This document shows positions 44,674 to 57,920 of a stretch of 64,000 bases of DNA, piece after piece. The notes below the pieces were generated by a model. That model did not search any database, was not told the origin of the DNA, and saw only the letters and a program-made list of their open reading frames with translations. A program made the position numbers and the translations under genes. Every line of letters starts with the position of its first letter. Within the stretch, counting starts at the first letter, position 1. This DNA is from Bacteroidota bacterium (GTDB lineage: Bacteria > Bacteroidota > Bacteroidia > Bacteroidales > Lentimicrobiaceae), in contig WSXX01000013.1 of NCBI GenBank assembly GCA_009773515.1, positions 62,001 to 126,000 of the forward strand, given 5' to 3'.

Positions 44674-44964
44674 ATGAAAACGCTTGAAGAAATCCAGCAA
44701 TTGTTGCGAAAACACAAGGAAAATTTGTTTTCTCGCTACCCCATCCGTTCAATGGCCATTTTTGGTTCATACGCCAGAAATGAGCAGGACGAAGGCAGCG
44801 ATCTCGACATTGTGGTAGAGTTTAACGGTAATATTGGTATTCGTTTTATTGATCTGGCCTGTGAACTTGAAAAACTGATCGGGTTTAAAGTTGACCTGGT
44901 ATCCCGAAATGGAATAAAGGAGAAGTATTTTCAGCGTATTAAAGAGGATTTAACTTATGTCTAA
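44674..44964 (+). CDS. MNT-type nucleotidyltransferase (antitoxin-like)
   Basis: MAIFGSYARNEQDEGSDLDIVVEF. Confidence 0.88.
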   Translation: MKTLEEIQQLLRKHKENLFSRYPIRSMAIFGSYARNEQDEGSDLDIVVEFNGNIGIRFIDLACELEKLIGFKVDLVSRNGIKEKYFQRIKEDLTYV

Positions 44965-45298
44965 AAGAGATTTAGTCCTTTTACTTGAAGATATACTTGA
45001 GGCCGCCCAAAAGATCAAACGATATTCCAGTGGCTTAAATTATGAAGCTTTCATTGATGATGATAAGACAATGGATGCGGTTGTCAGGAATTTCGAAATT
45101 ATAGGAGAAGCGGCAAAATCGATTAAGTGATGATTTTCGTATTTCGAACCCGCAAATAGCTTGGGACAGGATGCGTGGATTCAGAAACCGAATAGTTCAT
45201 GATTTTTTGGTATAGACTACGAAATCGTATGGGATATCATCGAGAACGATCTTAATACACTTATTGAACAGATTGAAGGGCTTATCTCGCATTTTTGA
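44957..45298 (+). pseudogene. HepT-like HEPN toxin disrupted by two frameshifts
   Basis: MSKRDLVLLLEDILEAAQKIKRYSSGLNYEAFIDDDKTMDAVVRNFEIIGEAAKSIK* then +1 frame DDFRISNPQIAWDRMRGFRNRIVHDF then another frame GIDYEIVWDIIENDLNTLIEQIEGLISHF*. Confidence 0.85.
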
Positions 45299-45334
45299 AC
45301 AGATTGAAACTGAAACAACGCGAGACTTGTGCGT

Positions 45335-46078
45335 TTAATGTTTCCCATTCCCGTTTATGCCAAAATGCTCAATGGCTTTCATAGCGGCGTTCTGCTCCGC
45401 ACCTTTTATTGAATAATCTCTGCCGGTTCCAACAACTTCATTGCTGATCAATACATCAACAACATATTGTTTGTGATATCCGGCTCCTACTTCCTGAACA
45501 ACTATAAACTCAAGGGTTCTCTTTTCTTTCTGAGCCCATTCTATGAGTTTGCTTTTAAAATTGACGTCGGTTGCAATTAATTCATTGAGGTCGAAGTTGT
45601 TCTTGATTACCCGGTTAATCAATACTTTACGGGTAAACTCAAAACCTTTGTCAAGATAAATGGCTCCGATAATCGCCTCAAAAGCATCGCCTTTGATGGA
45701 TCGGTAAACATTATTTTTTTCCTGGGTATGAATAATAAGCTGATCAATACCAAGCCGGAGCGACAATTTATTTAATTGTGCGCGGCTTACGATTTTCGAT
45801 CGCATTTCGGTAAGGAATCCCTCATCTTTGAAAGGAAACATCCTGAAAAGATGATCAGCCACCACAGTGCTGAGTACAGTATCGCCCAAAAACTCCAGGC
45901 GCTCATTACTTACCCTCATGCCGTTGAGCAAAACTTCAGACTGGGATTTATGGCGGAAAGCAAGCTTGTATAAAAAAATATTTTCGGGATAAAACCCGAA
46001 AATATTTTTTATGGCTTCATAAAAGTGCTTTTCGTTCGAAAGGTAAAACCTGAGAGGTCTTAATTTGAAAGAGTACAC
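45335..46078 (-). CDS. rnc: Ribonuclease III
   Basis: NERLEFLGDTVLSTVVADHLF; KGDAFEAIIGAIYLDKGF; C-term dsRBD. Confidence 0.95.
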   Translation of the reverse strand: MYSFKLRPLRFYLSNEKHFYEAIKNIFGFYPENIFLYKLAFRHKSQSEVLLNGMRVSNERLEFLGDTVLSTVVADHLFRMFPFKDEGFLTEMRSKIVSRAQLNKLSLRLGIDQLIIHTQEKNNVYRSIKGDAFEAIIGAIYLDKGFEFTRKVLINRVIKNNFDLNELIATDVNFKSKLIEWAQKEKRTLEFIVVQEVGAGYHKQYVVDVLISNEVVGTGRDYSIKGAEQNAAMKAIEHFGINGNGKH

Positions 46079-46081
46079 AAG

Positions 46082-47335
46082 TTATTCAACAAATTTCTTA
46101 AAGAGAATTGAGGCATTATGCCCTCCAAACCCAAATGTATTGCTGATTGCGGCATTGATTTCCCTTTTAACTGCTTTGTGGAAAGTGTAATTCAGGGAAT
46201 TGTCAATATCCGGATCATCAGTAAAGTGGTTGATGGTAGGCGGAACAATGTTGTTTTGAACAGCCAGAATAGTAGCAATCGATTCAACGGCTCCGGCAGC
46301 GCCCAACAGGTGTCCGGTCATAGACTTGGTGCTGTTGATGTTGATGGTTGGAGCATGATCGCCAAACAGTATTGCAATGGCTTTAGTTTCAGCTATATCT
46401 CCAAGAGGTGTTGAAGTACCATGGGTATTGATGTGATCAATATCGGTAATACTTAAACCTGACTCAAGCAAGGCAGCTTTCATCGCTCTGCGGGCTCCGT
46501 CACCTTCAGGGTGCGGGCCTGTCATGTGATATGCATCAGCGGTAAGTCCGCTACCTACAATCTCACAGTAAATTTTTGCTCCGCGGGCAAGTGCATGTTC
46601 AAGTTCTTCAACCACCAAAGCACCGGCTCCTTCACCAATCACAAAACCATCACGGCCTTTATCGAAAGGACGGGAAGCAGTTTTTGGATCATCGTTTCTG
46701 GTTGATATGGCGTGCATGGCATTAAAACCACCGACTCCCGGAGGATTAACGGCTGCTTCAGAACCACCACAAATAAACATTTCAGCTTTGCCCCATTTAA
46801 TGTAGCTGAATGCATCAACAATGGCATTGGCCGAAGATGCGCAGGCCGAAACCGTAGCAAAATTCGGGCCTTTGAATCCATGTTTAATGGATATGTGCCC
46901 TGCGGTGATGTCAGCAATCATTTTAGGAATAAAAAACGGGTTGAATCGGGGAGTTCCGTCGCCTCTGGCAAAATCACTCACTTCATCAAGGAAAGTAACC
47001 AACCCTCCAATACCTGAAGCCCAGATAACACCAACACGCTCGAGGTCGAGTTTTTCGGTAATTAATCCGGCATCTGCAATGGCTTCATCAGATGAAACCA
47101 TTCCGTATTGGGCATAGGGATCGTACTTTCGAACCTCTTTCCTGTCGAAAAAATTCAAAGGGTCGAAGTTCTTGACTTCGCATGCAAACTGAGTTTTAAA
47201 CTTTGCTGCATCGAACCGTGTGATACGGTCAGCGCCGCTTACTCCATTAACCAAACTGTTCCAATATTCAGGAACAGTATTGCCTATTGGAGTAAGCGCA
47301 CCAAGTCCGGTTACTACAACTCGTCTTACCTTCAT
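46082..47335 (-). CDS. fabF: Beta-ketoacyl-ACP synthase II
   Basis: RRVVVTGLGALTPIGNTV; VSACASSANAI; NTHGTSTPLGD; KSMTGHLLGAAGAVE. Confidence 0.97.
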   Translation of the reverse strand: MKVRRVVVTGLGALTPIGNTVPEYWNSLVNGVSGADRITRFDAAKFKTQFACEVKNFDPLNFFDRKEVRKYDPYAQYGMVSSDEAIADAGLITEKLDLERVGVIWASGIGGLVTFLDEVSDFARGDGTPRFNPFFIPKMIADITAGHISIKHGFKGPNFATVSACASSANAIVDAFSYIKWGKAEMFICGGSEAAVNPPGVGGFNAMHAISTRNDDPKTASRPFDKGRDGFVIGEGAGALVVEELEHALARGAKIYCEIVGSGLTADAYHMTGPHPEGDGARRAMKAALLESGLSITDIDHINTHGTSTPLGDIAETKAIAILFGDHAPTININSTKSMTGHLLGAAGAVESIATILAVQNNIVPPTINHFTDDPDIDNSLNYTFHKAVKREINAAISNTFGFGGHNASILFKKFVE

Positions 47336-47347
47336 TCAGGAAATTCC

Positions 47348-47584
47348 TTATTTGGTGTTGTTTTCAATGTAAGCAACAGCATCGCCTACGGTACCGATTT
47401 TTTCTGCCTGATCATCTGGGATAGCAATGTTGAATTCTTTTTCGAATTCCATGATCAGTTCAACGGTATCAAGAGAATCTGCACCTAAATCGTTGGTGAA
47501 ACTTGCTTCCGGAGTTACCTCGTTCTCATCAACGCCAAGCTTATCAACTATGATAGCTTTTACTTTTGTTGCAATGTCTGACAT
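47348..47584 (-). CDS. acpP: Acyl carrier protein
   Basis: [51 protein letters not shown]; internal start in ORF 47348..47638. Confidence 0.96.
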
Positions 47585-48015
47585 GTTTTCTCCTTTTTTG
47601 GTTTGAGGCTGCAAAGAAACAAATAATTCAAATACCAAACAAAACTTTTAAAGAAACCCCTGCAGCCATACAAATGTAATATGCTGTAAAACAAATAAAT
47701 AAGTATTATTGTGCATATTCCATGCAGCAAATATCAAATGCGTAAATATTTATAAATCAGTAAGATAAGCTCATATTTAGATAGGAATTAAAATTGGCTT
47801 AAAAATTTCATCTCTGTGAGCCTGTTTCTGACTACTTGATATTATATAGGTTATGAACTTTTGTTTGGCAGGAATGCAAAATTACCTTAACTTTCACTGC
47901 TTTTTAAAATGACTGTTATTCTGATTCTCTTGTTGTGTGCGCATAGGCCACACATTTTTCTCTCTTATTGCGGTGTGTTTAAATATGTCAGATTCCAACC
48001 TTAAAATTAATTAAT

Positions 48016-48219
48016 ATGAGTGAAAATCAATCAAATATCCCGTTACCTCCTCAGAAGAAAAAGAGGAAAAGGGGATGCTGTTTCGGATGTTTTATAGTCA
48101 TATTGGTAATTATTGCAGCAATTATCGGCCTGTTTGCATATTATTGGTATCAGAGTATTCCAAAAAAATCGCCGGTGGAAAAAGAGTACAATACCATTCC
48201 TGATTATTTCGAAAACTAA
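48016..48219 (+). CDS. Small single-TM protein, hypothetical
   Basis: Basic N-term PPQKKKRKRGCCFGCFIVILVIIAAIIGLFAYYW; 6 bp before next gene. Confidence 0.6.
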   Translation: MSENQSNIPLPPQKKKRKRGCCFGCFIVILVIIAAIIGLFAYYWYQSIPKKSPVEKEYNTIPDYFEN

Positions 48220-48225
48220 CCAGAT

Positions 48226-51200
48226 ATGAAAAAGATATTGGTCTTATTGGTTTTGTGTGTTTGGATAATAAATGGTTTTGCACAGCAGGATTTCCGCTTG
48301 CTGGTGGAACCTGGTAAACCACAACTGGCAGGCGATGGAGATGATTTTACCACGCTAGTTATTTCTGCAAGAAACAGCGAAGGTGAGGTTATTACCTCGA
48401 TGGATGGAAAGGTGAAAATAGGCGTAAGCTCCGGTTTTCCGGATGAAACCGAAGTTAATATGCAATCAGGCGTGGCGCTGGTGAAATTTACATCTCCCAT
48501 GTTTGGAACTCCTGTAAAATCGTCGCAACGTATGGTTTATTTTATGTTCCGCTTTATGCAGAAGTTTATGGCTCGTGCTACTGGCTCAACTGATTATAAT
48601 GCCAATCAGAAACTGGCAACCGATATTGCGCTTGAAACTTTTCGCGAAGGCCTGAATCCAATTACTCTTATTCCAAAAAAAGATGGTGATAATTTTGTGT
48701 ATATCGTCTGCGAAATGAATGGGGTAAAAGGCAAAGCAAAAATTGAGATTACAAAAGCTACCGATGGGCGAAACGGAAATATTGTTCCAGGGGTTTATTA
48801 TGGCAAGGATATCACCGGGCAATCAGACTGGATGCTTGACATCAGCAGAGGCGGAGAAGGTTATTTTGGCGAAGCAAATGCATCGTCGAGCGAACAGGTG
48901 GCTATTCTTTTTTCCAATGAAGATTTTGTCGAATTTAATGATGCCATGGGAAAAATGGCAGGAATGACCGGTTTTAAGAAGGCATACCTTGGACCACCTG
49001 CAAGTGAGCAGAAATACTATGAAAATTATGATATTAGTAAAAACGGGATGCCGTCAGCTTATATGCCAATGCCAAACCACGGCGTATTTGTTTACATTCC
49101 TCCGATTTTATTTGAATATGCCGGCCAACGTAAGGATAATGAAAAGGCGGCTTCAGAAACCGAAGAGATAAAAACAGAAAAGACCGGTATTGTGCTTAGT
49201 CAGAATAAGATTATTGGTGACGGTCGCAGCCGGACAAAAGCGGTATTTCACTTTGAAGATGAAAATGGCATACCCGTTGAAGGGAAAGCAGTTACATGGT
49301 TTATTCCCGATGGGTTGAAAGTAATTTCGAAGGAAACTGTTACAAATGCCCTTGGAAATGCTACTATTGTTCTTGAGGCGCCGGTAATAAAGGCTTCTGA
49401 AGAGAAGCGAGGTGAAAACACAGGCGGGTTGATAGATAATTATGACCTTTTTCTGATTAAAGCAAGCTATCCTTCTCTAAGTGAAAAAACTGAAACTACT
49501 CAGGCGTATCTGTCTGTTTATAAAACCCTTGAACAGGATTTATATATTCTTAAAGCCGGAATGGAGTTGACTCCCTATAAAGTTTTGCTGCCTCAACTCG
49601 AATATTATAATCTCGAAAGCAGCATTTATGCCCTGCTTCCCGAAAGTTATATGACAGTTCCCAACAAGAAAACTCCTGTAAACGATGCAGTGGTTTTTCT
49701 TGCCAGTCGTTTGTTTGATAAAGCTGAATTTCAAAAGGTTTATGATTTTTACTTTAAGAAAGACCGGGCGCTTTTTATGCAATTGCTCGAAAACGATAAA
49801 GGTGGATTTTCGGCCGTTACTGATGCCTCGGGAAAATACAAACTGGTTGTTAGAGATTTTGAAGGGAAAAAGCGTCTTTATTCCGGCGATTATGACCGAA
49901 AGATAATGATGGAGCCGCTTGAAGCTAAAATTGCAGACCTCACCGGTCGGCGTAAAGGTGCACTTACCGAAGTGCTTGATCTGCTTGCAGGAGGAGATCC
50001 AGCCGTTGCCGGAACACAAAATGCCGGAGATCCATCGGTGGTAACAACCATTAAAGCAATGGATTTTAAAGCAAATGTGCTGACGAAATTGCTTCAGATG
50101 GAGAATGATTTGTGCTCCGCCGGACATCAGGAAGCTTTTTATATTGAAGAAAAGTTTCACATCATCGGAATGACAATGACGAACATTAAAGGCACTTCCA
50201 GATATATGCGCGATTGTGCAAAAGTATTCGGAGCGCAGTCATATGAGGCCGTCAAATTCCTATTGTTTTATGCTGCCGAAAAATATAAGTTTAATGAAAA
50301 ACTAGGCAATTGGTTTTCGAAGACAAAAGGTGGAGAGAAACTCAGTGATGCAGGACTGCAGGCTAAAGGTTATGTAGATACTTACCTTGTTGGATTGACT
50401 GAGGATAAAGGCACAAAAACAATTATGCAGCAGGCTCTGCTTTACATGGTTTCGGAAGTAAAAAAACTTCCGACAGATGAATATTATAAGCTTTTAGGTC
50501 ATGCTGCCAATTATGCGCTTACTGAAAAGCAGAAACAAATGTTAGATGTGATGGTGGATGGGGTTGTTTACTATCTGCCGTTTCCCGATAAAATTGCTGA
50601 TCTTCTTATCAGAGAATATTATGCCGGGCAAACCAATGAAGTTATTAAACTGCTGAATCAGGATCCCGCAAAATTGCATGCAGTTTATGATCAATTGCAG
50701 CCGGCACTGCGCGACAGGTCAACCGAAATTCGTCAGCAATATACCGATGTTGCAGCCTGGAGGTTAAATCTGGATATGTTTAAGGCTTACACCGATCTTT
50801 TTGCTGATCTGATAGTAAAAGGAGCAGTAATTATATGGGATGTCAAGACCCTTAATTTCGCGAATATCCATAAGCATATGGAATACATTGACAATACCAA
50901 AAATGCACTGAATGCCGCTTATCATGCATCAAGTCTGGCGCTTGAATTTATGAGTTACCGTAATTTGTGGGCCGAAAGTGATGCCGCACTTATTTATACC
51001 AATAAGTGTATTGAGCAGGGAACCATGAGCCCCGTAGCTGAAAACAAAAACTTTTCATTCCCGCTTTTTCCTTCGGCTATGGCTTCAGGTGTCTCCGATC
51101 TGAGTTTATTGAAAGGGGTTCCGGCTTTAACCGCAAATCAGCTTAGCCTTAAAAACGGCAGTTTGCCGGTTAATGAATTAAATCAGTTGTACAACGGGTT

Positions 51201-51831
51201 TCCGGAATTCAACAAATGGTTTGATCAGAACGCTGAAAAGCTTTTGTGGCTATCTGTCGATTCGCCTGAAATGGCTTCAGAACTCTTCAAAGCGCGTGAT
51301 GAATATAACAATCACCTTCAGGGGCTTACCATTCTTGCCCTGGGAATTATTGAGACACCGGATGATGCTGCCTTGAAAACAAAATGGAAAACGGTTTCGG
51401 AGCAGATGGCCGGAACTACTGAATCAATCAACAAGGCCGGCAGTGCTGCTTTTGAGAAAATGAAAACCATAGAATCCGACCCACAGGTGAATATACCTGA
51501 TAAATCTCCTTCATTGATTCCTGATCAGATTGAGGAAAACAAACTGATCACCTATGTACTTATTTCAGCGGGTGTTTTGGTTGTGATGGTGGTTCTGGTA
51601 ATTTTGATCCGCCGAAAGCGCCGGACAAAAAGAAGTTTTCCCGAAGTTGTGACAACTCATGTGTCTCCACCGGTTTACCAAAATCCAACTGCTCCGGCTG
51701 TTTCAAATATCCCGACTCCAAAGCAACCACCCCCAATTCAGGCGTCGCCCGAGCTGAAATTCTGTCCGCAATGCGGCACTCAATTGAAGCCGGGAGCCAG
51801 GTTTTGCGGGAAATGCGGGCATCATCTGTAG
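48226..51831 (+). CDS. Large exported protein with Ig-like segments, C-terminal TM, Pro-rich linker and terminal zinc ribbon
   Basis: Signal peptide; GNATIVLEAPV and GIPVEGKAVTWFIPDGL Ig-like; TM YVLISAGVLVVMVVLVILIRRKRR; KFCPQCGTQLKPGARFCGKCGHHL. Confidence 0.8.
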   Translation: MKKILVLLVLCVWIINGFAQQDFRLLVEPGKPQLAGDGDDFTTLVISARNSEGEVITSMDGKVKIGVSSGFPDETEVNMQSGVALVKFTSPMFGTPVKSSQRMVYFMFRFMQKFMARATGSTDYNANQKLATDIALETFREGLNPITLIPKKDGDNFVYIVCEMNGVKGKAKIEITKATDGRNGNIVPGVYYGKDITGQSDWMLDISRGGEGYFGEANASSSEQVAILFSNEDFVEFNDAMGKMAGMTGFKKAYLGPPASEQKYYENYDISKNGMPSAYMPMPNHGVFVYIPPILFEYAGQRKDNEKAASETEEIKTEKTGIVLSQNKIIGDGRSRTKAVFHFEDENGIPVEGKAVTWFIPDGLKVISKETVTNALGNATIVLEAPVIKASEEKRGENTGGLIDNYDLFLIKASYPSLSEKTETTQAYLSVYKTLEQDLYILKAGMELTPYKVLLPQLEYYNLESSIYALLPESYMTVPNKKTPVNDAVVFLASRLFDKAEFQKVYDFYFKKDRALFMQLLENDKGGFSAVTDASGKYKLVVRDFEGKKRLYSGDYDRKIMMEPLEAKIADLTGRRKGALTEVLDLLAGGDPAVAGTQNAGDPSVVTTIKAMDFKANVLTKLLQMENDLCSAGHQEAFYIEEKFHIIGMTMTNIKGTSRYMRDCAKVFGAQSYEAVKFLLFYAAEKYKFNEKLGNWFSKTKGGEKLSDAGLQAKGYVDTYLVGLTEDKGTKTIMQQALLYMVSEVKKLPTDEYYKLLGHAANYALTEKQKQMLDVMVDGVVYYLPFPDKIADLLIREYYAGQTNEVIKLLNQDPAKLHAVYDQLQPALRDRSTEIRQQYTDVAAWRLNLDMFKAYTDLFADLIVKGAVIIWDVKTLNFANIHKHMEYIDNTKNALNAAYHASSLALEFMSYRNLWAESDAALIYTNKCIEQGTMSPVAENKNFSFPLFPSAMASGVSDLSLLKGVPALTANQLSLKNGSLPVNELNQLYNGFPEFNKWFDQNAEKLLWLSVDSPEMASELFKARDEYNNHLQGLTILALGIIETPDDAALKTKWKTVSEQMAGTTESINKAGSAAFEKMKTIESDPQVNIPDKSPSLIPDQIEENKLITYVLISAGVLVVMVVLVILIRRKRRTKRSFPEVVTTHVSPPVYQNPTAPAVSNIPTPKQPPPIQASPELKFCPQCGTQLKPGARFCGKCGHHL

Positions 51832-51882
51832 AAATATGGTGTATAAAAACTTAATTTTGACAAACATCTTTAACCAAATCGT

Positions 51883-52473
51883 ATGACAAAATTTTCCTTC
51901 AGTCTGGCAATATCTCTATTTGCAATCGTATTTTTTGCTTCGTGCAACCCAAAGCAACAGACTGAAAATACAGACAAAAATGAGTTCGACACACTATCCT
52001 TCAAACAGCAGGGTGATTCAATATCAGCCATTATGCAGCGGGTTCTGCTTTCAAATGTGATGCAGGCCACCAAAGCAGGAGGCCCTGTTTATGCTGTAGC
52101 CTTTTGCAATGAGCGAGCCATGCCTCTGACCGATTCACTGTCGCAGAAATATAATTGCCTGATTCAACGGATTTCGGATAAATACCGAAACCCTGCCAAT
52201 AAACCCTCTAAAAATGAGGAAGATGTTTTAGTCAGGATGGGATCTTCAATTTCAGGGGAACCTATGCTGGTATCAGAAAATGGGAAAGTGATTTATTACA
52301 AACCCATCAGAATTGCCATGCCAGCCTGCCTTAACTGTCATGGAAATGCAGAGAAAGATATTGCCGCGAAAACTCTAGAAGTCATAATGCAGAAATACCC
52401 CAACGACTTAGCCATTGGTTATAAGGAGGGCGATTTTCGCGGTTTATGGAAAATTACTTTCCCGGAAGAATAA
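51883..52473 (+). CDS. DUF3365-like lipoprotein with CxxCH motif
   Basis: Lipobox FFASC; MPACLNCHGNAEKDIAAKTLEVIMQKYPNDLAIGYKEGDFRGLWKITF. Confidence 0.75.
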   Translation: MTKFSFSLAISLFAIVFFASCNPKQQTENTDKNEFDTLSFKQQGDSISAIMQRVLLSNVMQATKAGGPVYAVAFCNERAMPLTDSLSQKYNCLIQRISDKYRNPANKPSKNEEDVLVRMGSSISGEPMLVSENGKVIYYKPIRIAMPACLNCHGNAEKDIAAKTLEVIMQKYPNDLAIGYKEGDFRGLWKITFPEE

Positions 52474-52553
52474 GGAAAGACTTTCTCAAAAGGGAATTAC
52501 CTTTATTCAATAATATTTAATAATGAAACAAGTACGTTTATATAAGAAAAAGT

Positions 52554-52603
52554 GTCTTCGACTCCGCTCAGACTGACAGTTATCCTGAGCGGAGTCGAAG
52601 GAC
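52554..52603. repeat. REP-like palindrome of the ttcgactccgctcag family
   Basis: gtcttcgactccgctcagactgacagttatcctgagcggagtcgaaggac between convergent genes. Confidence 0.8.
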
Positions 52604-52653
52604 ATTTATTCATTTTATTTTCAATTTCTAAATCTTAACTACACAACATTAAA

Positions 52654-53514
52654 TCAGGAATTCTTAATCGCAATCACCCTGCGGTAAATAGAACCCAGAT
52701 AATTCATCATGGTTACATGCCGGTTGGCAGCCGGTGCAATCAGTACTTTTCCGGTTCCGGTAAATGTATTCACGATTCCTTCGCCTGATGTCCAGGATGA
52801 GAAAAGTCCTTTCGTGGCTTTGTTAACCGTAAATTCTATGCCTGCAGTCCGGGCTACTGCGAATGAACCATCAACAACCAGACGGTCGTTTACAAGATTT
52901 ATTTCTTCGAGTGGTCCGTTTGAAACGACAATCACTTTACCAGTGCCTGAAACCTGTGTCTGAAAGAATCCCTCACCTGAGAAGAACCCGCTGATGGCCT
53001 TGTTTGTCCAAAGGCCGACTTCTATGCCCATTTCGGAAGCATAGTAAGCACCTTTGTCAAGAATCCATGTTTCGTTATGGAGTTCCATTACGGTAAACTC
53101 TCCAAAGCTTGGTTCAAGATAAACAGTTCCGGTTCCTGAGATAGTCGGTTTGAAGGCTGTTTCTTTGGTAACCATCGACTTAAGCAATCCACCGGCAGAA
53201 GGCATTTTTGACTCTATCTGCAGATTGCCCTGCATATAATACATCGCGCCCGATTCGCAGCGAAACATTGCATTTTGCATCTCAACCTTAACCATTTTCA
53301 GCATTTGCTTTTCTTCAACGCTGAAATTGAGCAATGAAGGCACTGTTCTAGCCTGCGGAGGAGGTGCCTGGTAAACCGGAGGGGGAGGTGCTGCCTGAGG
53401 TTGCATGGTTTGTTGAATGGGAGGAGCAGCGCCGGCATCCTGCCTTGCACCACACTCATGACAAAAAACGGCGCCGTCTTTCAGGCGTGATCCACAATTT
53501 CCACAAAAAGCCAT
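52654..53514 (-). CDS. AIM24-family protein with N-terminal zinc ribbon and Pro-rich linker
   Basis: MAFCGNCGSRLKDGAVFCHECG; PPPPVYQAPPPQ; repeated GTGxV(Y/I)(L/V) beta motifs. Confidence 0.82.
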   Translation of the reverse strand: MAFCGNCGSRLKDGAVFCHECGARQDAGAAPPIQQTMQPQAAPPPPVYQAPPPQARTVPSLLNFSVEEKQMLKMVKVEMQNAMFRCESGAMYYMQGNLQIESKMPSAGGLLKSMVTKETAFKPTISGTGTVYLEPSFGEFTVMELHNETWILDKGAYYASEMGIEVGLWTNKAISGFFSGEGFFQTQVSGTGKVIVVSNGPLEEINLVNDRLVVDGSFAVARTAGIEFTVNKATKGLFSSWTSGEGIVNTFTGTGKVLIAPAANRHVTMMNYLGSIYRRVIAIKNS

Positions 53515-53548
53515 AACTTTTTAGTTTTGAAGTTTCAATTTTTATTCT

Positions 53549-54271
53549 TCAGTTTTCTTCTTTTAACTGAGCTGCAATCCTCAGGGCTTCGCTCCACTTC
53601 TGTTCAGGCACAGGTACCCTGATTTCGTAATGTTCTAATCCGGTGCGGGTAAGATAGCTCATCACCAGCCGCAACAGAGGTGGATTGCTGTTTTCGTCGG
53701 CCGAAACCTTATCAAGCGATGCGCCCAGCATATTCCAGTTGTGATAGGTTCGGCCCACCAGAACTGATGTTGCCGAAATCATGACCAATGGAGGTGCTGA
53801 ACGTTTTCTTTTGTGCCGGAACCGCGAAAAAGTGAATGCCGGAATAGCTATCATAGCAATGACTCCCAGACAGATATACAGAAAAAGTATATCTTTGGAA
53901 ATTATGCTGAGCAGAATCCCGACAATCAGCGAAATCACAGAAATCAGGATAAATGTCCCTTTGCTGCTTGCCTTATCCTCCTTAAAATCAATCTCAACAA
54001 ACCTTTGCCATTCCTCCTGAGTAAGTTCCCATTGTGCAATGTGTTTGTCAAGCTTTATCAACCTGTTGAGTTCTATTGCCCGTTTGCGGTAAACTACAAT
54101 TACCACCAATCCGCTGATGGCCAGAAATCCGCTGATAACTATAATGGCAAAACCGCCATCCATTCCTTCAATTCCAAAAATGGCAGGAACAAAACATCCC
54201 AGGATGAACAACATGGTGACGAATGTTGTAATCCTCACTACTTTCCACTGGTTATTGGCTGGTTTCTCCAT
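53549..54271 (-). CDS. Hypothetical membrane protein; start placed at MEKPANNQ
   Basis: Four hydrophobic segments; the upstream extension overlaps the 54279 ORF. Confidence 0.6.
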   Translation of the reverse strand: MEKPANNQWKVVRITTFVTMLFILGCFVPAIFGIEGMDGGFAIIVISGFLAISGLVVIVVYRKRAIELNRLIKLDKHIAQWELTQEEWQRFVEIDFKEDKASSKGTFILISVISLIVGILLSIISKDILFLYICLGVIAMIAIPAFTFSRFRHKRKRSAPPLVMISATSVLVGRTYHNWNMLGASLDKVSADENSNPPLLRLVMSYLTRTGLEHYEIRVPVPEQKWSEALRIAAQLKEEN

Positions 54272-54278
54272 GGAATGA

Positions 54279-56261
54279 TCAATCAGCTTCGTATCCTTCA
54301 ACAATAACAAAACCCTTGCGACCCGACTCAGCGTTGTATGACCATGATTTTTCATCGGAAACCACAACTTTGTAGGTTCCCGGTTCCATCCTGGCATTGG
54401 GTTCACAAATCCATTTCCCATTTACCGTTCCATCGCTGCCGTAAGCGTTTCTTGCCTGCCACGGGCCACCGGTTTCCTTCTTTTTGCCTTCCAGCATTAT
54501 GGTTCCGGCAACAGCACCGTTGCCGTCGTTGTGATGAAAGGTCGTTATACGGGTGACAAAGGTTGGCTTGCTGAACTTAACCTTTTGAGCAAATACAGGT
54601 CCGCCTTTTACTTCTTTGGTGTTAAATGAACTGAAAAGCGTAACTGACGATTTTTCGGTAGTTGTGTTTTTTAAAACAACAGTTACCTGATCGTTTTTCT
54701 TTACCGGTTCTTCCGGAACTACCTGCTGTTTCTGAGGCTCTGTTGTTTTTTTAGGTGTTTTTTTCTTCGGTTGTGTTTGTTTCTTTTCGGTTTCTTTGGG
54801 CAATTCGGCTTCTACTGCAGTAACTTCTTCAGGCAGTTGTTCCTCAGACATATTGCTCTCTGGTACCTGAACCGGGGGTGTAACCTCATTTTGTGCTACT
54901 GTAGTTTCTGCAGATTCTGTTTTTTCGTTTGCGAAAAACTTATTATAGGCAAACCAGCCTCCTGCACCCAGCACGCCCAAGGCAAGCAATCCAAGAAGTA
55001 CCACCAGAATCAGCTTATTGTTTTTCTTTTTCGTTGCCGGCCCTTCAGCTGCTGTGCTTGCCAATGGTGCAGGTTTCGAAATAACTTTCTCTTTTTTTGA
55101 TGGCTTTTGCAAAGACGGCACCGGTGCAATAACAGGTTCAGCAATCGAGGCTTCTGTTTTTGGTTCAGGAGTTGCAACTGATGCGATTTCAGCATTCATA
55201 TTGTGTCCGCAATCCTGACAAAATACATCATCAAGGCTTTGTTTTGAGCCGCAATTCGGGCAGAACTGTGTCGGAGTGCTGCTTCCGGACTGATTTATTT
55301 CCGTTTCCGGAGCTGCTTCATTCACTGGTTGCAGAACGGGAACTGGTTCAGGAATTATTTCAGGAACATTATCCGGTAAAACTTCCGCGACGGGCAAAGC
55401 AACAGGCGTTTCTGCTATGACTGCAGCCTGTTTGTCAAAGCCACATTCAGCACAAAACCTTTCTTCAATTGCCAGTGGTGTGGCGCACTTCGGACAGGTT
55501 TCTTTTGGTTGTTCAGGTTCAGATTGCGGTAAAACTTCCGCGATGGGCAAAACAACAGGCGTTTCATCTATGACTGCAGCCTGTTTATCAAAACCACATT
55601 CAGCACAAAACCTTTCTTCAATTGCCAGTGGTGTAGCGCACTTCGGACAGGTTTCTTTAGGTTGTTCAGGTTCAGATTGCGGTAAAACTTCCGCAACGGG
55701 CAAAACAACAGGCGTTTCAGCTATGACTGCAGCCTGTTTGTCAAAACCACATTCAGCACAAAACCTTTCTTCAATTGCCAGTGGTGCGGTGCACTTCGGA
55801 CAGGTTTCTTTAGGTTGTTCAGGTTCAGATTGCGGTAAAACTTCCGCAACGGGCAAAACAACAGGCGTTCCAGCTATAACTGCAGCCTGTTTGTCAAAGC
55901 CACATTCAGCACAAAACCTGTCATCTGCTGCCAGTGGTGCTGTGCATTTCGGACAGGTTTCTTTTGGTTGTTCAGGTTCAGATTGCGGTAAAACTTCCGC
56001 AACGGGCAAAACAACAGGCGTTTCAGCTATGACTGCCGCCTGTTTATCAAAACCGCATTCAGCACAAAACCTGTCTTCAGCTGCCAATGGTGCCGTGCAC
56101 TTCGGACAAACCGGTTCAATGTTTAAAGGTTTCACGGTTTCCCCTGACTCAGCGGGAAATCCTGAATCTTCAATTACCATCGATTGTTTATCAAAGCCAC
56201 ACTCCTGACAAAAGCGGGCATCAGGCTCAAAGGTGGCACCACATTGCGGACAGAATTTCAT
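54279..56261 (-). CDS. Multi-zinc-ribbon repeat membrane protein
   Basis: Seven CxxC...CxxC ribbons; near-identical 51-aa units CPKC(T/A)xPLAxxxRFCAECGFDKQAAVIxETPVVLPVAEVLPQSEPEQPKET; TM KLILVVLLGLLALGVLGAGGWFAYN; C-terminal beta-rich domain. Confidence 0.88.
   Translation of the reverse strand: MKFCPQCGATFEPDARFCQECGFDKQSMVIEDSGFPAESGETVKPLNIEPVCPKCTAPLAAEDRFCAECGFDKQAAVIAETPVVLPVAEVLPQSEPEQPKETCPKCTAPLAADDRFCAECGFDKQAAVIAGTPVVLPVAEVLPQSEPEQPKETCPKCTAPLAIEERFCAECGFDKQAAVIAETPVVLPVAEVLPQSEPEQPKETCPKCATPLAIEERFCAECGFDKQAAVIDETPVVLPIAEVLPQSEPEQPKETCPKCATPLAIEERFCAECGFDKQAAVIAETPVALPVAEVLPDNVPEIIPEPVPVLQPVNEAAPETEINQSGSSTPTQFCPNCGSKQSLDDVFCQDCGHNMNAEIASVATPEPKTEASIAEPVIAPVPSLQKPSKKEKVISKPAPLASTAAEGPATKKKNNKLILVVLLGLLALGVLGAGGWFAYNKFFANEKTESAETTVAQNEVTPPVQVPESNMSEEQLPEEVTAVEAELPKETEKKQTQPKKKTPKKTTEPQKQQVVPEEPVKKNDQVTVVLKNTTTEKSSVTLFSSFNTKEVKGGPVFAQKVKFSKPTFVTRITTFHHNDGNGAVAGTIMLEGKKKETGGPWQARNAYGSDGTVNGKWICEPNARMEPGTYKVVVSDEKSWSYNAESGRKGFVIVEGYEAD
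55373..56108 (-). repeat. Coding tandem repeat, 153-bp units (four full and one partial)
   Basis: 51-aa units at near identity within 54279..56261. Confidence 0.85.
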
Positions 56262-56300
56262 CGGACAGAGATTTTAGTTAAATAAATTTATAATCGGGAA

Positions 56301-57146
56301 TTACATTCCTCCAAATCCAGCCATTTTAGCTCCGAAAAATAATCCAACAATTCCACCTATGATCAAAGCCATAACGAAACTGATTATTATCAGCGCAATG
56401 ATGACCACCACCACATAACCAACAACTTTTTCTTTTGGAGTGTTTTTAAGTACCGGCATACCAACTGCCAGAAGGTAGATGGCATATAAGCCTATTACGA
56501 GAATAAGCATGCTGATACCAGTTCCAAAAATCAGCAAAATACCGGCAACCCACTGAGGAGTAGAAGAGTAAACGGCAAGTTGCAATGACCGCCCGAAATC
56601 CTTTTTTGAATCAAAGGAAGGGGCGAGCAGATCAATTACCCAGGCCAGCAGATATGCACCCAGCACTGCAGAGATAAGCTGTACAATCCCATATTGGATG
56701 CCGGTAGCAATGCTTCGGGAGGTATATCCCCAGAAGGTAACACCAATAACTCCGAACTTAATGAATGATGCAATCGCCGGTATAGCTGCAAGAATCAATG
56801 CATATCCAACAATCAGTTTGGTAGCGTCGGGCTTTTCAGAAGCCACCACATGCCATTCTTCCTTTGGTTTTATAAGGATATTAATTACCCGTTGAATCAG
56901 ATTTGAGGTTTTTGCATTTCCATAGACCGGCTCATTGTAAGATTGCTGAGGAGGAGCCTGATACACAGGAGGAGGAGCCTGATACACAGGAGGAGGAGCC
57001 TGATACACAGGAGGAGGTGGTGGCGGTGCAACCGGTGGCTGACTTTTTGGTTGTTCAACAGTTTCTGCCTGGCTTGGCTTTCCGCATGAGGGACAGAACT
57101 TTACTCCTTCACGGAGCTCATTTCCACAACTGGTACAAAATTTCAT
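56301..57146 (-). CDS. YIP1-family membrane protein with N-terminal zinc ribbon and PPPVYQA repeats
   Basis: MKFCTSCGNELREGVKFCPSCGKPSQ; (PPPVYQA)3; VINILIKPKEEWHVVASEKPDATKLIVGYALILAAIPAIASFI. Confidence 0.85.
   Translation of the reverse strand: MKFCTSCGNELREGVKFCPSCGKPSQAETVEQPKSQPPVAPPPPPPVYQAPPPVYQAPPPVYQAPPQQSYNEPVYGNAKTSNLIQRVINILIKPKEEWHVVASEKPDATKLIVGYALILAAIPAIASFIKFGVIGVTFWGYTSRSIATGIQYGIVQLISAVLGAYLLAWVIDLLAPSFDSKKDFGRSLQLAVYSSTPQWVAGILLIFGTGISMLILVIGLYAIYLLAVGMPVLKNTPKEKVVGYVVVVIIALIIISFVMALIIGGIVGLFFGAKMAGFGGM
56950..57018. repeat. 21-bp coding tandem repeat (PPPVYQA)n
   Basis: gcctgatacacaggaggagga repeated three times. Confidence 0.8.
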
Positions 57147-57379
57147 AATATGAATTTTAATTTGGTTAAAGGTTCCGGATTTTTAATGATCAGTTGAAAA
57201 GTGAAAGCAGAAAAAATAGCGAGGAGCAGGTCAGAGAATTATTACGTTTAGCAAAAATACCCAAACATATATGGTTTGGCAATAGGCTTGCGCTATTTAA
57301 ATGCATTCTAAATTGCCATCAACAAAACCAGATGTAAATATAGTATTATGCAGAGATGATGGATAATAAACGTCTAAAA

Positions 57380-57650
57380 CACTTCGACTACGCTCAGTGT
57401 GACATTCGTGTTAGGGGAGCAATGATTCTCTTTAATGCACACGTTGACAGCTATATACGATGTCCTCCTGAGTTAAGACTCAAAAATATTTGAGCGTAAT
57501 GCGGAGATGACAGGTGGAAACTGTATCAAAAACACTTCGACTCCGCTCAGTGTGACATTGGTGTTTTAACAGCGTTGTTCCACTTTAATAATTTCATTAT
57601 CAATTGAATACGAAGTCATCCTGAGCGGAGTCGAAGGATCGGACGAACAA
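57380..57650. repeat. Composite MITE-like element (two tandem related modules)
   Basis: Three ttcgact(c/a)cgctcag sites and cctgagcggagtcgaagg; inverted homolog of 2484-2690. Confidence 0.75.
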
Positions 57651-57654
57651 TCCC

Positions 57655-57803
57655 CGGCTAAGCGGCATTTGCAATGCCGCTTTGAACATCATTGAATTTG
57701 TAATTCAATATATCTGCCCGACTGATTCATTCCTTAAGTCGCTTATTTGGATAATTGCAAATTATCCAGTGTTCAGAGCGGCATTGCAAATGCCGCTCAG
57801 CCG
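57655..57803. repeat. REP/MITE-like element with 28-bp near-perfect inverted ends
   Basis: cggctaagcggcatttgcaatgccgct ... agagcggcattgcaaatgccgctcagccg; inner palindromes attgaatttgtaattcaat and ggataattgcaaattatcc. Confidence 0.85.
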
Positions 57804-57805
57804 TC

Positions 57806-57920
57806 ATTGGTCTCTCCCTTTCGGGAGTCGAAGGACAAACGATCAATCTGTCATTGGTAGCGGAGTCGAAGGATAAGACGAACAATTTGTCATCGGTATC
57901 GGAACAAAGGACAAAACGAG
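57806..57920. repeat. Degenerate tandem gtcat(t/c)ggtA...gagtcgaagga(c/t)aa(g)acgaacaat units
   Basis: Three related units in succession. Confidence 0.65.

What the first reader, a model, noticed from the sequence alone, without database searches (positions are those of the whole stretch)
48016..57146. Zinc-ribbon/Pro-linker membrane cluster (Ig-like/TM, AIM24, 7-ribbon protein, YIP1): candidate undescribed envelope system
Four proteins in about 9 kb carry CxxC...CxxC zinc ribbons at a terminus. Three carry related Pro-rich linkers (PPPVYQAPPP in AIM24 and YIP1, SPPVYQNPT in the Ig-like protein). They are joined to unrelated effector or membrane modules: a 1201-aa exported Ig-like protein with TM, AIM24, YIP1, and a multi-ribbon TM protein. 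A 67-aa TM protein, a CxxCH lipoprotein and a 4-TM protein lie among them. Shared modules in adjacent genes suggest one complex or regulon, possibly in envelope stress or membrane organisation. Co-function is inference.
Basis: partly seen in the sequence, partly recalled or inferred. Interest (0 to 1): 0.75.

Follow-up and report, generated by a model that had tools for sequence, protein, structure and literature searches.

The report
Co-inherited zinc-ribbon-tagged envelope gene set
In Lentimicrobium-like bacteria, several otherwise unrelated membrane, periplasmic and cytoplasmic proteins carry the same small zinc-binding tag on their cytoplasmic side and are present in or absent from genomes as a set, which suggests an undescribed membrane-maintenance machine held together by that tag.

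Summary
Four ribbon proteins (Ig-like/TM, AIM24, 7-ribbon TM, YIP1) lie in 9 kb of a Lentimicrobium-like Bacteroidales genome, in two convergent runs: TM67-Ig and YIP1-ZnRn-4TM-AIM24. Ten same-genus genomes lack all of it, and the Zn_Ribbon_1 model finds no match anywhere in those ten. Presence is patchy on an rpoB tree (5 changes; one clade rejected). Sister genome G018 lacks both halves but keeps genes that in relatives lie between them. An unlinked pair (two-ribbon TM protein plus phospholipase-C-like protein) occurs only in cluster-positive genomes. In Bacteroidales, 11 of 13 ribbon-bearing YIP1 genes have a second ribbon gene nearby, against 0 of 17 ribbonless ones. Ribbons are predicted cytosolic, whatever their carrier's topology. 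Best reading: a cytosolic zinc-ribbon hub (ZnRn scaffold plus ribbon-tagged clients) for envelope maintenance, working like the B. subtilis PspA-YdjGHI module but without PspA. Co-function is well supported; the hub mechanism and envelope role are inferred. The Pro-linker is not conserved; the CxxCH lipoprotein is probably not core.

The parts
48016..48219 (+). TM67: single-TM protein with a CCxxC motif at the cytosolic TM edge, always paired with the Ig-like gene
   Evidence: present before Ig in all 8 loci compared
48226..51831 (+). Ig: exported 1201-aa protein, Big_1 domain, TM ~1110-1128, cytosolic basic stretch and C-terminal zinc ribbon (1180-1197)
   Evidence: found only in 9 same-genus genomes of 149
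51883..52473 (+). Tll0287-like (PF11845) CLNCH lipoprotein; neighbour, probably not core (kept without the ribbon genes in G018)
52654..53514 (-). AIM24 with N-terminal zinc ribbon; soluble, 83-94% identical among relatives
53549..54271 (-). 4-TM protein (2+2 TM) with C-terminal soluble domain; relatives have a paralogue with an N-terminal ribbon
   Evidence: start inferred from alignment
54279..56261 (-). ZnR7: seven cytosolic zinc ribbons, TM ~417-435, periplasmic beta-sandwich domain at the C-terminus; proposed scaffold
   Evidence: 4-5 ribbons in complete relatives
55374..56108 (.). 153-bp tandem repeat (4.8 copies, 93% matches) encoding ribbons 2-6 and linkers
56301..57146 (-). YIP1 (4 predicted TM) with N-terminal zinc ribbon and Pro-rich linker
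57252..57282 (-). Promoter-like element TTGCC...GGTATTTTTG upstream of YIP1; the search pattern is met upstream of YIP1 in 8 of 9 cluster-positive genomes (G017 diverges by one base)
   Evidence: 37 of 100 shuffles of the window give a match by chance; the support is its conservation

Best explanation
The ribbon genes encode parts of one inner-membrane-associated system held together on the cytosolic face by zinc ribbons. ZnRn, with 4-7 cytosolic ribbons, one TM and a periplasmic beta-sandwich, is the multivalent scaffold. AIM24 (soluble), YIP1 (multi-TM), the Ig-like periplasmic protein and, in some genomes, a ribbon-4TM protein, a two-ribbon TM protein paired with a phospholipase-C-like protein, and a two-ribbon TM lipase-like protein are clients that dock through their own ribbons. 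The system most likely senses and repairs or remodels the inner membrane/envelope, working like the PspA-YdjGHI module of Bacillus subtilis but without PspA. Shown: shared ribbons, conserved synteny, all-or-none distribution, unlinked members with the same distribution, ribbon-next-to-ribbon neighbourhoods in other Bacteroidales. Predicted: cytosolic side of the ribbons. Inferred: physical complex, ribbon as docking module, envelope/lipid function.
For: Nine of nine genomes with the Ig gene have the block at one site; 10 same-genus genomes have none of it and no Zn_Ribbon_1 match at all. Presence is patchy on rpoB: 5 changes; one-clade test p-AU 1.9e-32. Sister genome G018 lacks both halves though it keeps Tll/TM171/lipo217. 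Ig and YIP1 trees differ (G006 groups with G004/G012/G015 for Ig, with G000/G001/G005 for YIP1), so the halves have separate histories yet co-occur. The PLC-like/two-ribbon pair, unlinked in six genomes and with non-matching flanks in the three compared, is in 7 of 9 cluster-positive and 0 of 10 cluster-negative same-genus genomes. The YIP1-ZnR and ZnR-AIM24 adjacencies recur in another family, G182. Ribbon-YIP1: 11 of 13 next to another ribbon gene vs 0 of 17 ribbonless. Ribbon side cytosolic in all carriers with a clear single TM. Precedent: YdjG has two ribbons and the SPFH partner one (PMC11237479), and these proteins need each other for membrane localisation (PMC8581546).
Against: Sign tests on independent lineages are underpowered (3 pairs on well-supported branches, none contradictory). 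Joint absence could partly reflect joint horizontal transfer. The Ig-like protein's model is too poor to interpret (mean pLDDT 43). No catalytic or sensing function is demonstrated for any member. A cytosolic ribbon could bind something other than another ribbon.
Confidence: 0.5

Rival explanations
1. Variable cargo region: the MnmA-FabF interval is a recombination-prone site where unrelated genes are exchanged together; co-occurrence reflects linkage, not shared function.
For: Patchy presence; 93% DNA identity of AcpP-FabF-Rnc to G018 against 83% in rpoB and 78% in MnmA shows local recombination at the flank; gene trees conflict with rpoB.
Against: Unlinked ribbon genes follow the same distribution; the same ribbon proteins sit together in G182, and YIP1+ribbon-TM pairs in G029 and G059, at other sites; the other 10 genomes have no Zn_Ribbon_1 match anywhere.
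Confidence: 0.15
2. The ribbons are docking sites for a common soluble partner (kinase, protease, ribosome or nucleic acid) and do not bind each other; the set is a group of clients of that partner.
For: Ribbons are of one Pfam family, predicted cytosolic, on carriers of unrelated topology; ribbon clusters in other phyla include FHA-ABC and trypsin-TM-ribbon proteins.
Against: No such partner is conserved in the cluster; the multi-ribbon scaffold suits multivalent assembly among the members.
Confidence: 0.2
3. A conflict or defence system (anti-phage or interbacterial): patchy, exchanged by recombination, with lipase/phospholipase-like effectors and an Ig-like exported protein.
For: All-or-none patchiness; phospholipase-C-like and PGAP1-like hydrolases among members; a PAAR-FecR-TM-ribbon protein in G017.
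Against: PADLOC finds no convincing defence family (one weak hit, E 0.0016, outside the ribbons in a low-complexity stretch); no nuclease, NTPase or obvious immunity gene; AIM24 is highly conserved, not fast-evolving.
Confidence: 0.1
4. Zinc storage or zinc-responsive module: many ribbons buffer or sense cytosolic zinc.
For: 14 Zn_Ribbon_1 matches in the genome; ribbon number varies by tandem amplification.
Against: No zinc transporter or Zur-like gene seen in the neighbourhood; ribbons are attached to membrane proteins with periplasmic domains; single-ribbon members make little sense as a store.
Confidence: 0.05

Closest known systems
Bacillus subtilis PspA-YdjGHI (phage-shock module with zinc-ribbon proteins)
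   Same: Several zinc-ribbon proteins in one gene cluster, a TM protein with two N-terminal ribbons (YdjG; compare ZnR238/ZnR265 here), soluble and membrane members; YdjG and YdjH are needed to bring YdjI and PspA to the membrane (PMC8581546, PMC11237479)
   Different: No PspA in the 13 genomes tested; AIM24, YIP1, Ig-like and lipase-like members instead of PspA, SPFH and TPM proteins; up to 7 ribbons in one scaffold
Archaeal YIP1/SpoIIM membrane-remodelling cassettes (Makarova et al. 2015, PMC5898192)
   Same: YIP1-family 4-TM proteins with small membrane proteins, predicted membrane remodelling
   Different: The paper's text mentions no zinc ribbon; no SpoIIM relative was recognised among the genes here
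Ter-linked AIM24 (group I ter clusters; Anantharaman et al. 2012, cited in PMC5822837)
   Same: AIM24 in a stress-related gene cluster
   Different: No TerD relative among the genes here; AIM24 carries a ribbon
Mitochondrial Aim24
   Same: AIM24 family (solved relatives 1pg6, 1yox by sequence); yeast Aim24 supports MICOS assembly (PMC8633786)
   Different: The bacterial protein is ribbon-tagged; MICOS relatives were not sought

Membership tests
PSP / PspA-YdjGHI system | PspA/IM30 present | tested here: not met
   no PF04012 match in G000 and 12 relatives; control genomes ring
PSP / PspA-YdjGHI system | several zinc-ribbon membrane-linked proteins in one cluster | tested here: met
PSP / PspA-YdjGHI system | TM protein with two ribbons and an NTF2-like/YpeB-related domain (YdjG) | tested here: inconclusive
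   ZnR238/ZnR265 have ribbon-ribbon-TM; the C-terminal domain gives only weak Pfam hits
PSP / PspA-YdjGHI system | SPFH/band-7 partner with C-terminal ribbon in the cluster | tested here: not met
   no band-7 hit among the cluster proteins; the whole genome was not searched for it
AIM24 family (PF01987) | profile match over the gathering score | tested here: met
   158 bits, cut-off 25.7
YIP1 family (PF04893) | profile match over the gathering score and multi-TM | tested here: met
   78 bits, cut-off 28.6; 4 predicted TM
Known anti-phage defence systems (PADLOC) | a convincing match to a defence family | tested here: not met
Envelope-stress regulon | induction by membrane or envelope stress | not testable with these tools
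   needs RNA-seq or reporter assays

The most novel reading that the evidence does not exclude
The Zn_Ribbon_1 domain acts as a membership code: a cytosolic ribbon is an address that recruits otherwise unrelated cytoplasmic, membrane and periplasmic proteins into one envelope complex on a multi-ribbon scaffold. The ribbon-rich operons seen in Bacillota, Bacteroidota, Spirochaetota and other phyla are variants of the same principle with different clients (FHA-ABC, trypsin, lipase, PAAR, YIP1, AIM24).
Probability: 0.35. Interest if true: 0.8.

Novelty: new variant of a known kind. Interest (0 to 1): 0.6.

Why it matters
Zinc ribbons on membrane proteins are very common in annotations and rarely explained. 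Here their presence in a genome is all-or-none and tied to a specific gene set at several loci, which makes a direct test possible: does the ribbon bind ribbons? If so, a large class of 'zinc-ribbon domain-containing protein' annotations could be placed into complexes, and bacterial AIM24 and YIP1, which to my knowledge are little characterised, would gain a context in membrane maintenance.

Tried and rejected
Structure of the Ig-like protein: 8-sequence alignment, mean pLDDT 43, not interpreted and not searched. The ZnR7 C-terminal domain gave a usable beta-sandwich (pLDDT 79), but PDB matches are only generic jelly rolls (best E 7e-3, TM-scores mostly 0.3-0.5): no ligand assigned. Sequence search for solved relatives of the 4-TM protein, the ZnR7 domain and Ig gave nothing meaningful. 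Idea that ribbons were copied locally: ribbons of different cluster genes are no more alike (35%) than cluster versus unlinked ribbons (33%), so not supported. Shared promoter for both halves: none found. Pro-linker as a shared module: rejected, not conserved. Direction (coordinated loss versus joint gain) left open: flanks of the unlinked pair do not match between genomes.

Full report
OBSERVATION. On the + strand lie TM67 (48016-48219), a 1201-aa exported Big_1 protein with C-terminal TM and zinc ribbon (48226-51831), and a Tll0287-like CLNCH lipoprotein (51883-52473). Convergent on the - strand lie YIP1 with an N-terminal ribbon (56301-57146), a 660-aa protein with seven ribbons, TM and C-terminal domain (54279-56261), a 4-TM protein (53549-54271) and AIM24 with an N-terminal ribbon (52654-53514). 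The whole genome (G000, 5.03 Mb) has 14 Zn_Ribbon_1 matches in only six genes, four of them here. In a simulation none of 200,000 random draws put 4 of 6 genes in a run of 7 of 4300 genes. Two corrections: ribbons 2-6 of the 660-aa protein are a 153-bp tandem array at 93% matches, with 4-5 ribbons in complete relatives, and the PPPVYQ linker is not conserved across relatives.

ORGANISM AND NEIGHBOURHOOD. Named relatives of the AIM24 gene at 81-93% identity are Lentimicrobium sp. and uncultured Bacteroidales MAGs. In nine same-genus genomes (G000, G001, G004, G005, G006, G012, G013, G015, G017) the block lies between MnmA and AcpP-FabF-Rnc (in G004, G006, G015 and G017 it is split over contigs): [YIP1 - ZnRn - 4TM - AIM24] convergent with [Tll - (TM171 - lipo217) - (extra ribbon genes) - Ig - TM67]. 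The window's genome has lost, or never had, TM171 and lipo217. In some relatives extra members are inserted: a ribbon-bearing 4-TM paralogue (304 aa), a two-ribbon TM protein of 238 aa followed by a ~690-aa protein, and 1004-1050-aa proteins. The 1050-aa protein of G015 has two ribbons, a TM and a PGAP1-like alpha/beta domain (E 1.5e-7). The ~690-aa protein has an invariant ETLHMIADNGCPSHVRNDAH stretch and a weak zinc-dependent phospholipase C match (E 0.019 for the own-genome copy); I call it PLC-like only.

ALL-OR-NONE DISTRIBUTION. The Ig-like gene is found in 9 of 149 relatives, all same genus (two further genomes match by a ribbon only). Ribbon-AIM24, the ZnRn C-terminal domain, the 4-TM protein and ribbon-YIP1 follow it within the genus; the gaps in G006 and G015 fit contig ends, and G182 of another family is the one outside case for ribbon-AIM24 and the ZnRn domain. 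Ten same-genus genomes (G002, G003, G007-G011, G014, G016, G018) lack every member, and the Zn_Ribbon_1 model finds nothing in them at E <= 0.01 (other ribbon models were not tried there). The site was read directly in nine of the ten (G011's contig ends): MnmA-Tll-TM171-lipo217-AcpP in G018, MnmA-TM-TM171-lipo217-AcpP in G010, MnmA-AcpP in G003, G008, G009, G014 and, by its contig end, G016; other genes in G002 and G007. On the rpoB tree presence needs 5 changes within the genus, and one clade is rejected (p-AU 1.9e-32). Formal power is low: 3 independent pairs on well-supported branches, and none contradictory for the unlinked genes.

WHY LINKAGE ALONE DOES NOT EXPLAIN IT. (a) In G018, sister of G000 on rpoB (100/99 support), both halves are missing while Tll, TM171 and lipo217 remain, so two separate stretches differ together. 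(b) The Ig and YIP1 trees disagree on G006, and Ig rejects grouping G000 with G006 (p-AU 6e-41) although rpoB puts them in one clade, so the halves have separate histories and still co-occur. (c) The two-ribbon/PLC-like pair lies away from the cluster in six genomes; flanks do not match in the three compared. It, or its in-cluster paralogue, is in 7 of 9 cluster-positive and 0 of 10 cluster-negative same-genus genomes; an unlinked 790-aa two-ribbon protein is in G000 and G006. (d) In G182 YIP1-ZnR and ZnR-AIM24 are again adjacent. Across Bacteroidales, 11 of 13 ribbon-YIP1 genes have a second ribbon gene within 1.5 kb, against 0 of 17 ribbonless YIP1 genes; the own ribbonless AIM24 paralogue has none nearby. 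Counting lineages, that is 4 of 5. (e) Across phyla, 24 of 43 loci picked only by an AIM24-type ribbon motif hold two or more ribbon genes, 83 extra per Mb, against none in 334 kb of background; the background is Bacteroidales only, so this is a rough comparison.

TOPOLOGY. Hydropathy and flanking charge put every ribbon on the cytosolic side in carriers with a clear single TM: N-terminal ribbons before N-in TMs (ZnR7, ZnR238, ZnR265, the 1050- and 790-aa proteins) and C-terminal ribbons after a signal peptide plus TM with a basic cytosolic flank (Ig; the PAAR-FecR protein of G017). For multi-TM YIP1 the charge signal is weak.

MECHANISM. The best reading is a cytosolic zinc-ribbon hub: ZnRn as multivalent inner-membrane scaffold with a periplasmic beta-sandwich (model pLDDT 79; no specific relative), and ribbon-tagged clients in cytosol (AIM24), membrane (YIP1, 4-TM paralogue) and periplasm (Ig, lipase- and PLC-linked proteins). 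Client chemistry and precedent point to membrane maintenance. In B. subtilis, YdjG carries two ribbons and an SPFH partner one (PMC11237479), and YdjG/H are needed for membrane recruitment of YdjI and PspA (PMC8581546). Yeast Aim24 supports MICOS assembly (PMC8633786), and YIP1 relatives are predicted membrane remodellers in archaea (PMC5898192). There is no PspA here, so membership in PSP is not claimed. Steps shown: tags, synteny, distribution. Steps inferred: complex, docking, envelope role.

KNOWN OR NEW. Text searches for AIM24, YIP1 and zinc ribbon found no paper describing such a set (open-licence library only). I rate it a new variant of a known kind (zinc-ribbon membrane modules). The broader 'ribbon as address' reading is the novel case.

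Noticed in passing
window 45330-47679 and L232: AcpP-FabF-Rnc is 93% identical in DNA to G018 (Rnc 100% in protein), while rpoB is 83% and MnmA 78%: recent local recombination at the cluster's flank.
   Followed up: partly
L054:4413-6290 (G017): 625-aa protein with signal peptide, PAAR motif (E 5.5e-9), FecR domain, TM and C-terminal zinc ribbon; its TM-ribbon tail resembles that of the Ig-like protein.
   Followed up: partly
L194:8946-11351 (G089): Another Bacteroidales operon with three ribbon proteins: a 4-TM-like protein with N-terminal ribbon, a TM protein with N-terminal ribbon and a short TM protein with C-terminal ribbon.
   Followed up: partly
L093, L076, L083, L096, L067 (Bacillota and others): Ribbon-rich operons with up to six ribbon genes close together, including FHA-ABC ATPase and trypsin-TM-ribbon proteins.
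   Followed up: partly
window 57370-57880: Intergenic stretch between YIP1 and MnmA with several copies of a CACTTCGACTNCGCTCAGTGTGACATT / CCTGAGCGGAGTCGAAGGAT-type repeat.
   Followed up: no
window 44674-45130: Nucleotidyltransferase-like ORF (96 aa) overlapping a short HepT-like ORF (57 aa); looks like an MNT-HEPN pair with a truncated second gene; judged by eye only.
   Followed up: no
window 55417-56208 +: 263-aa ORF antisense to the ribbon repeats; a shadow of the 153-bp tandem repeat, not a gene.
   Followed up: yes
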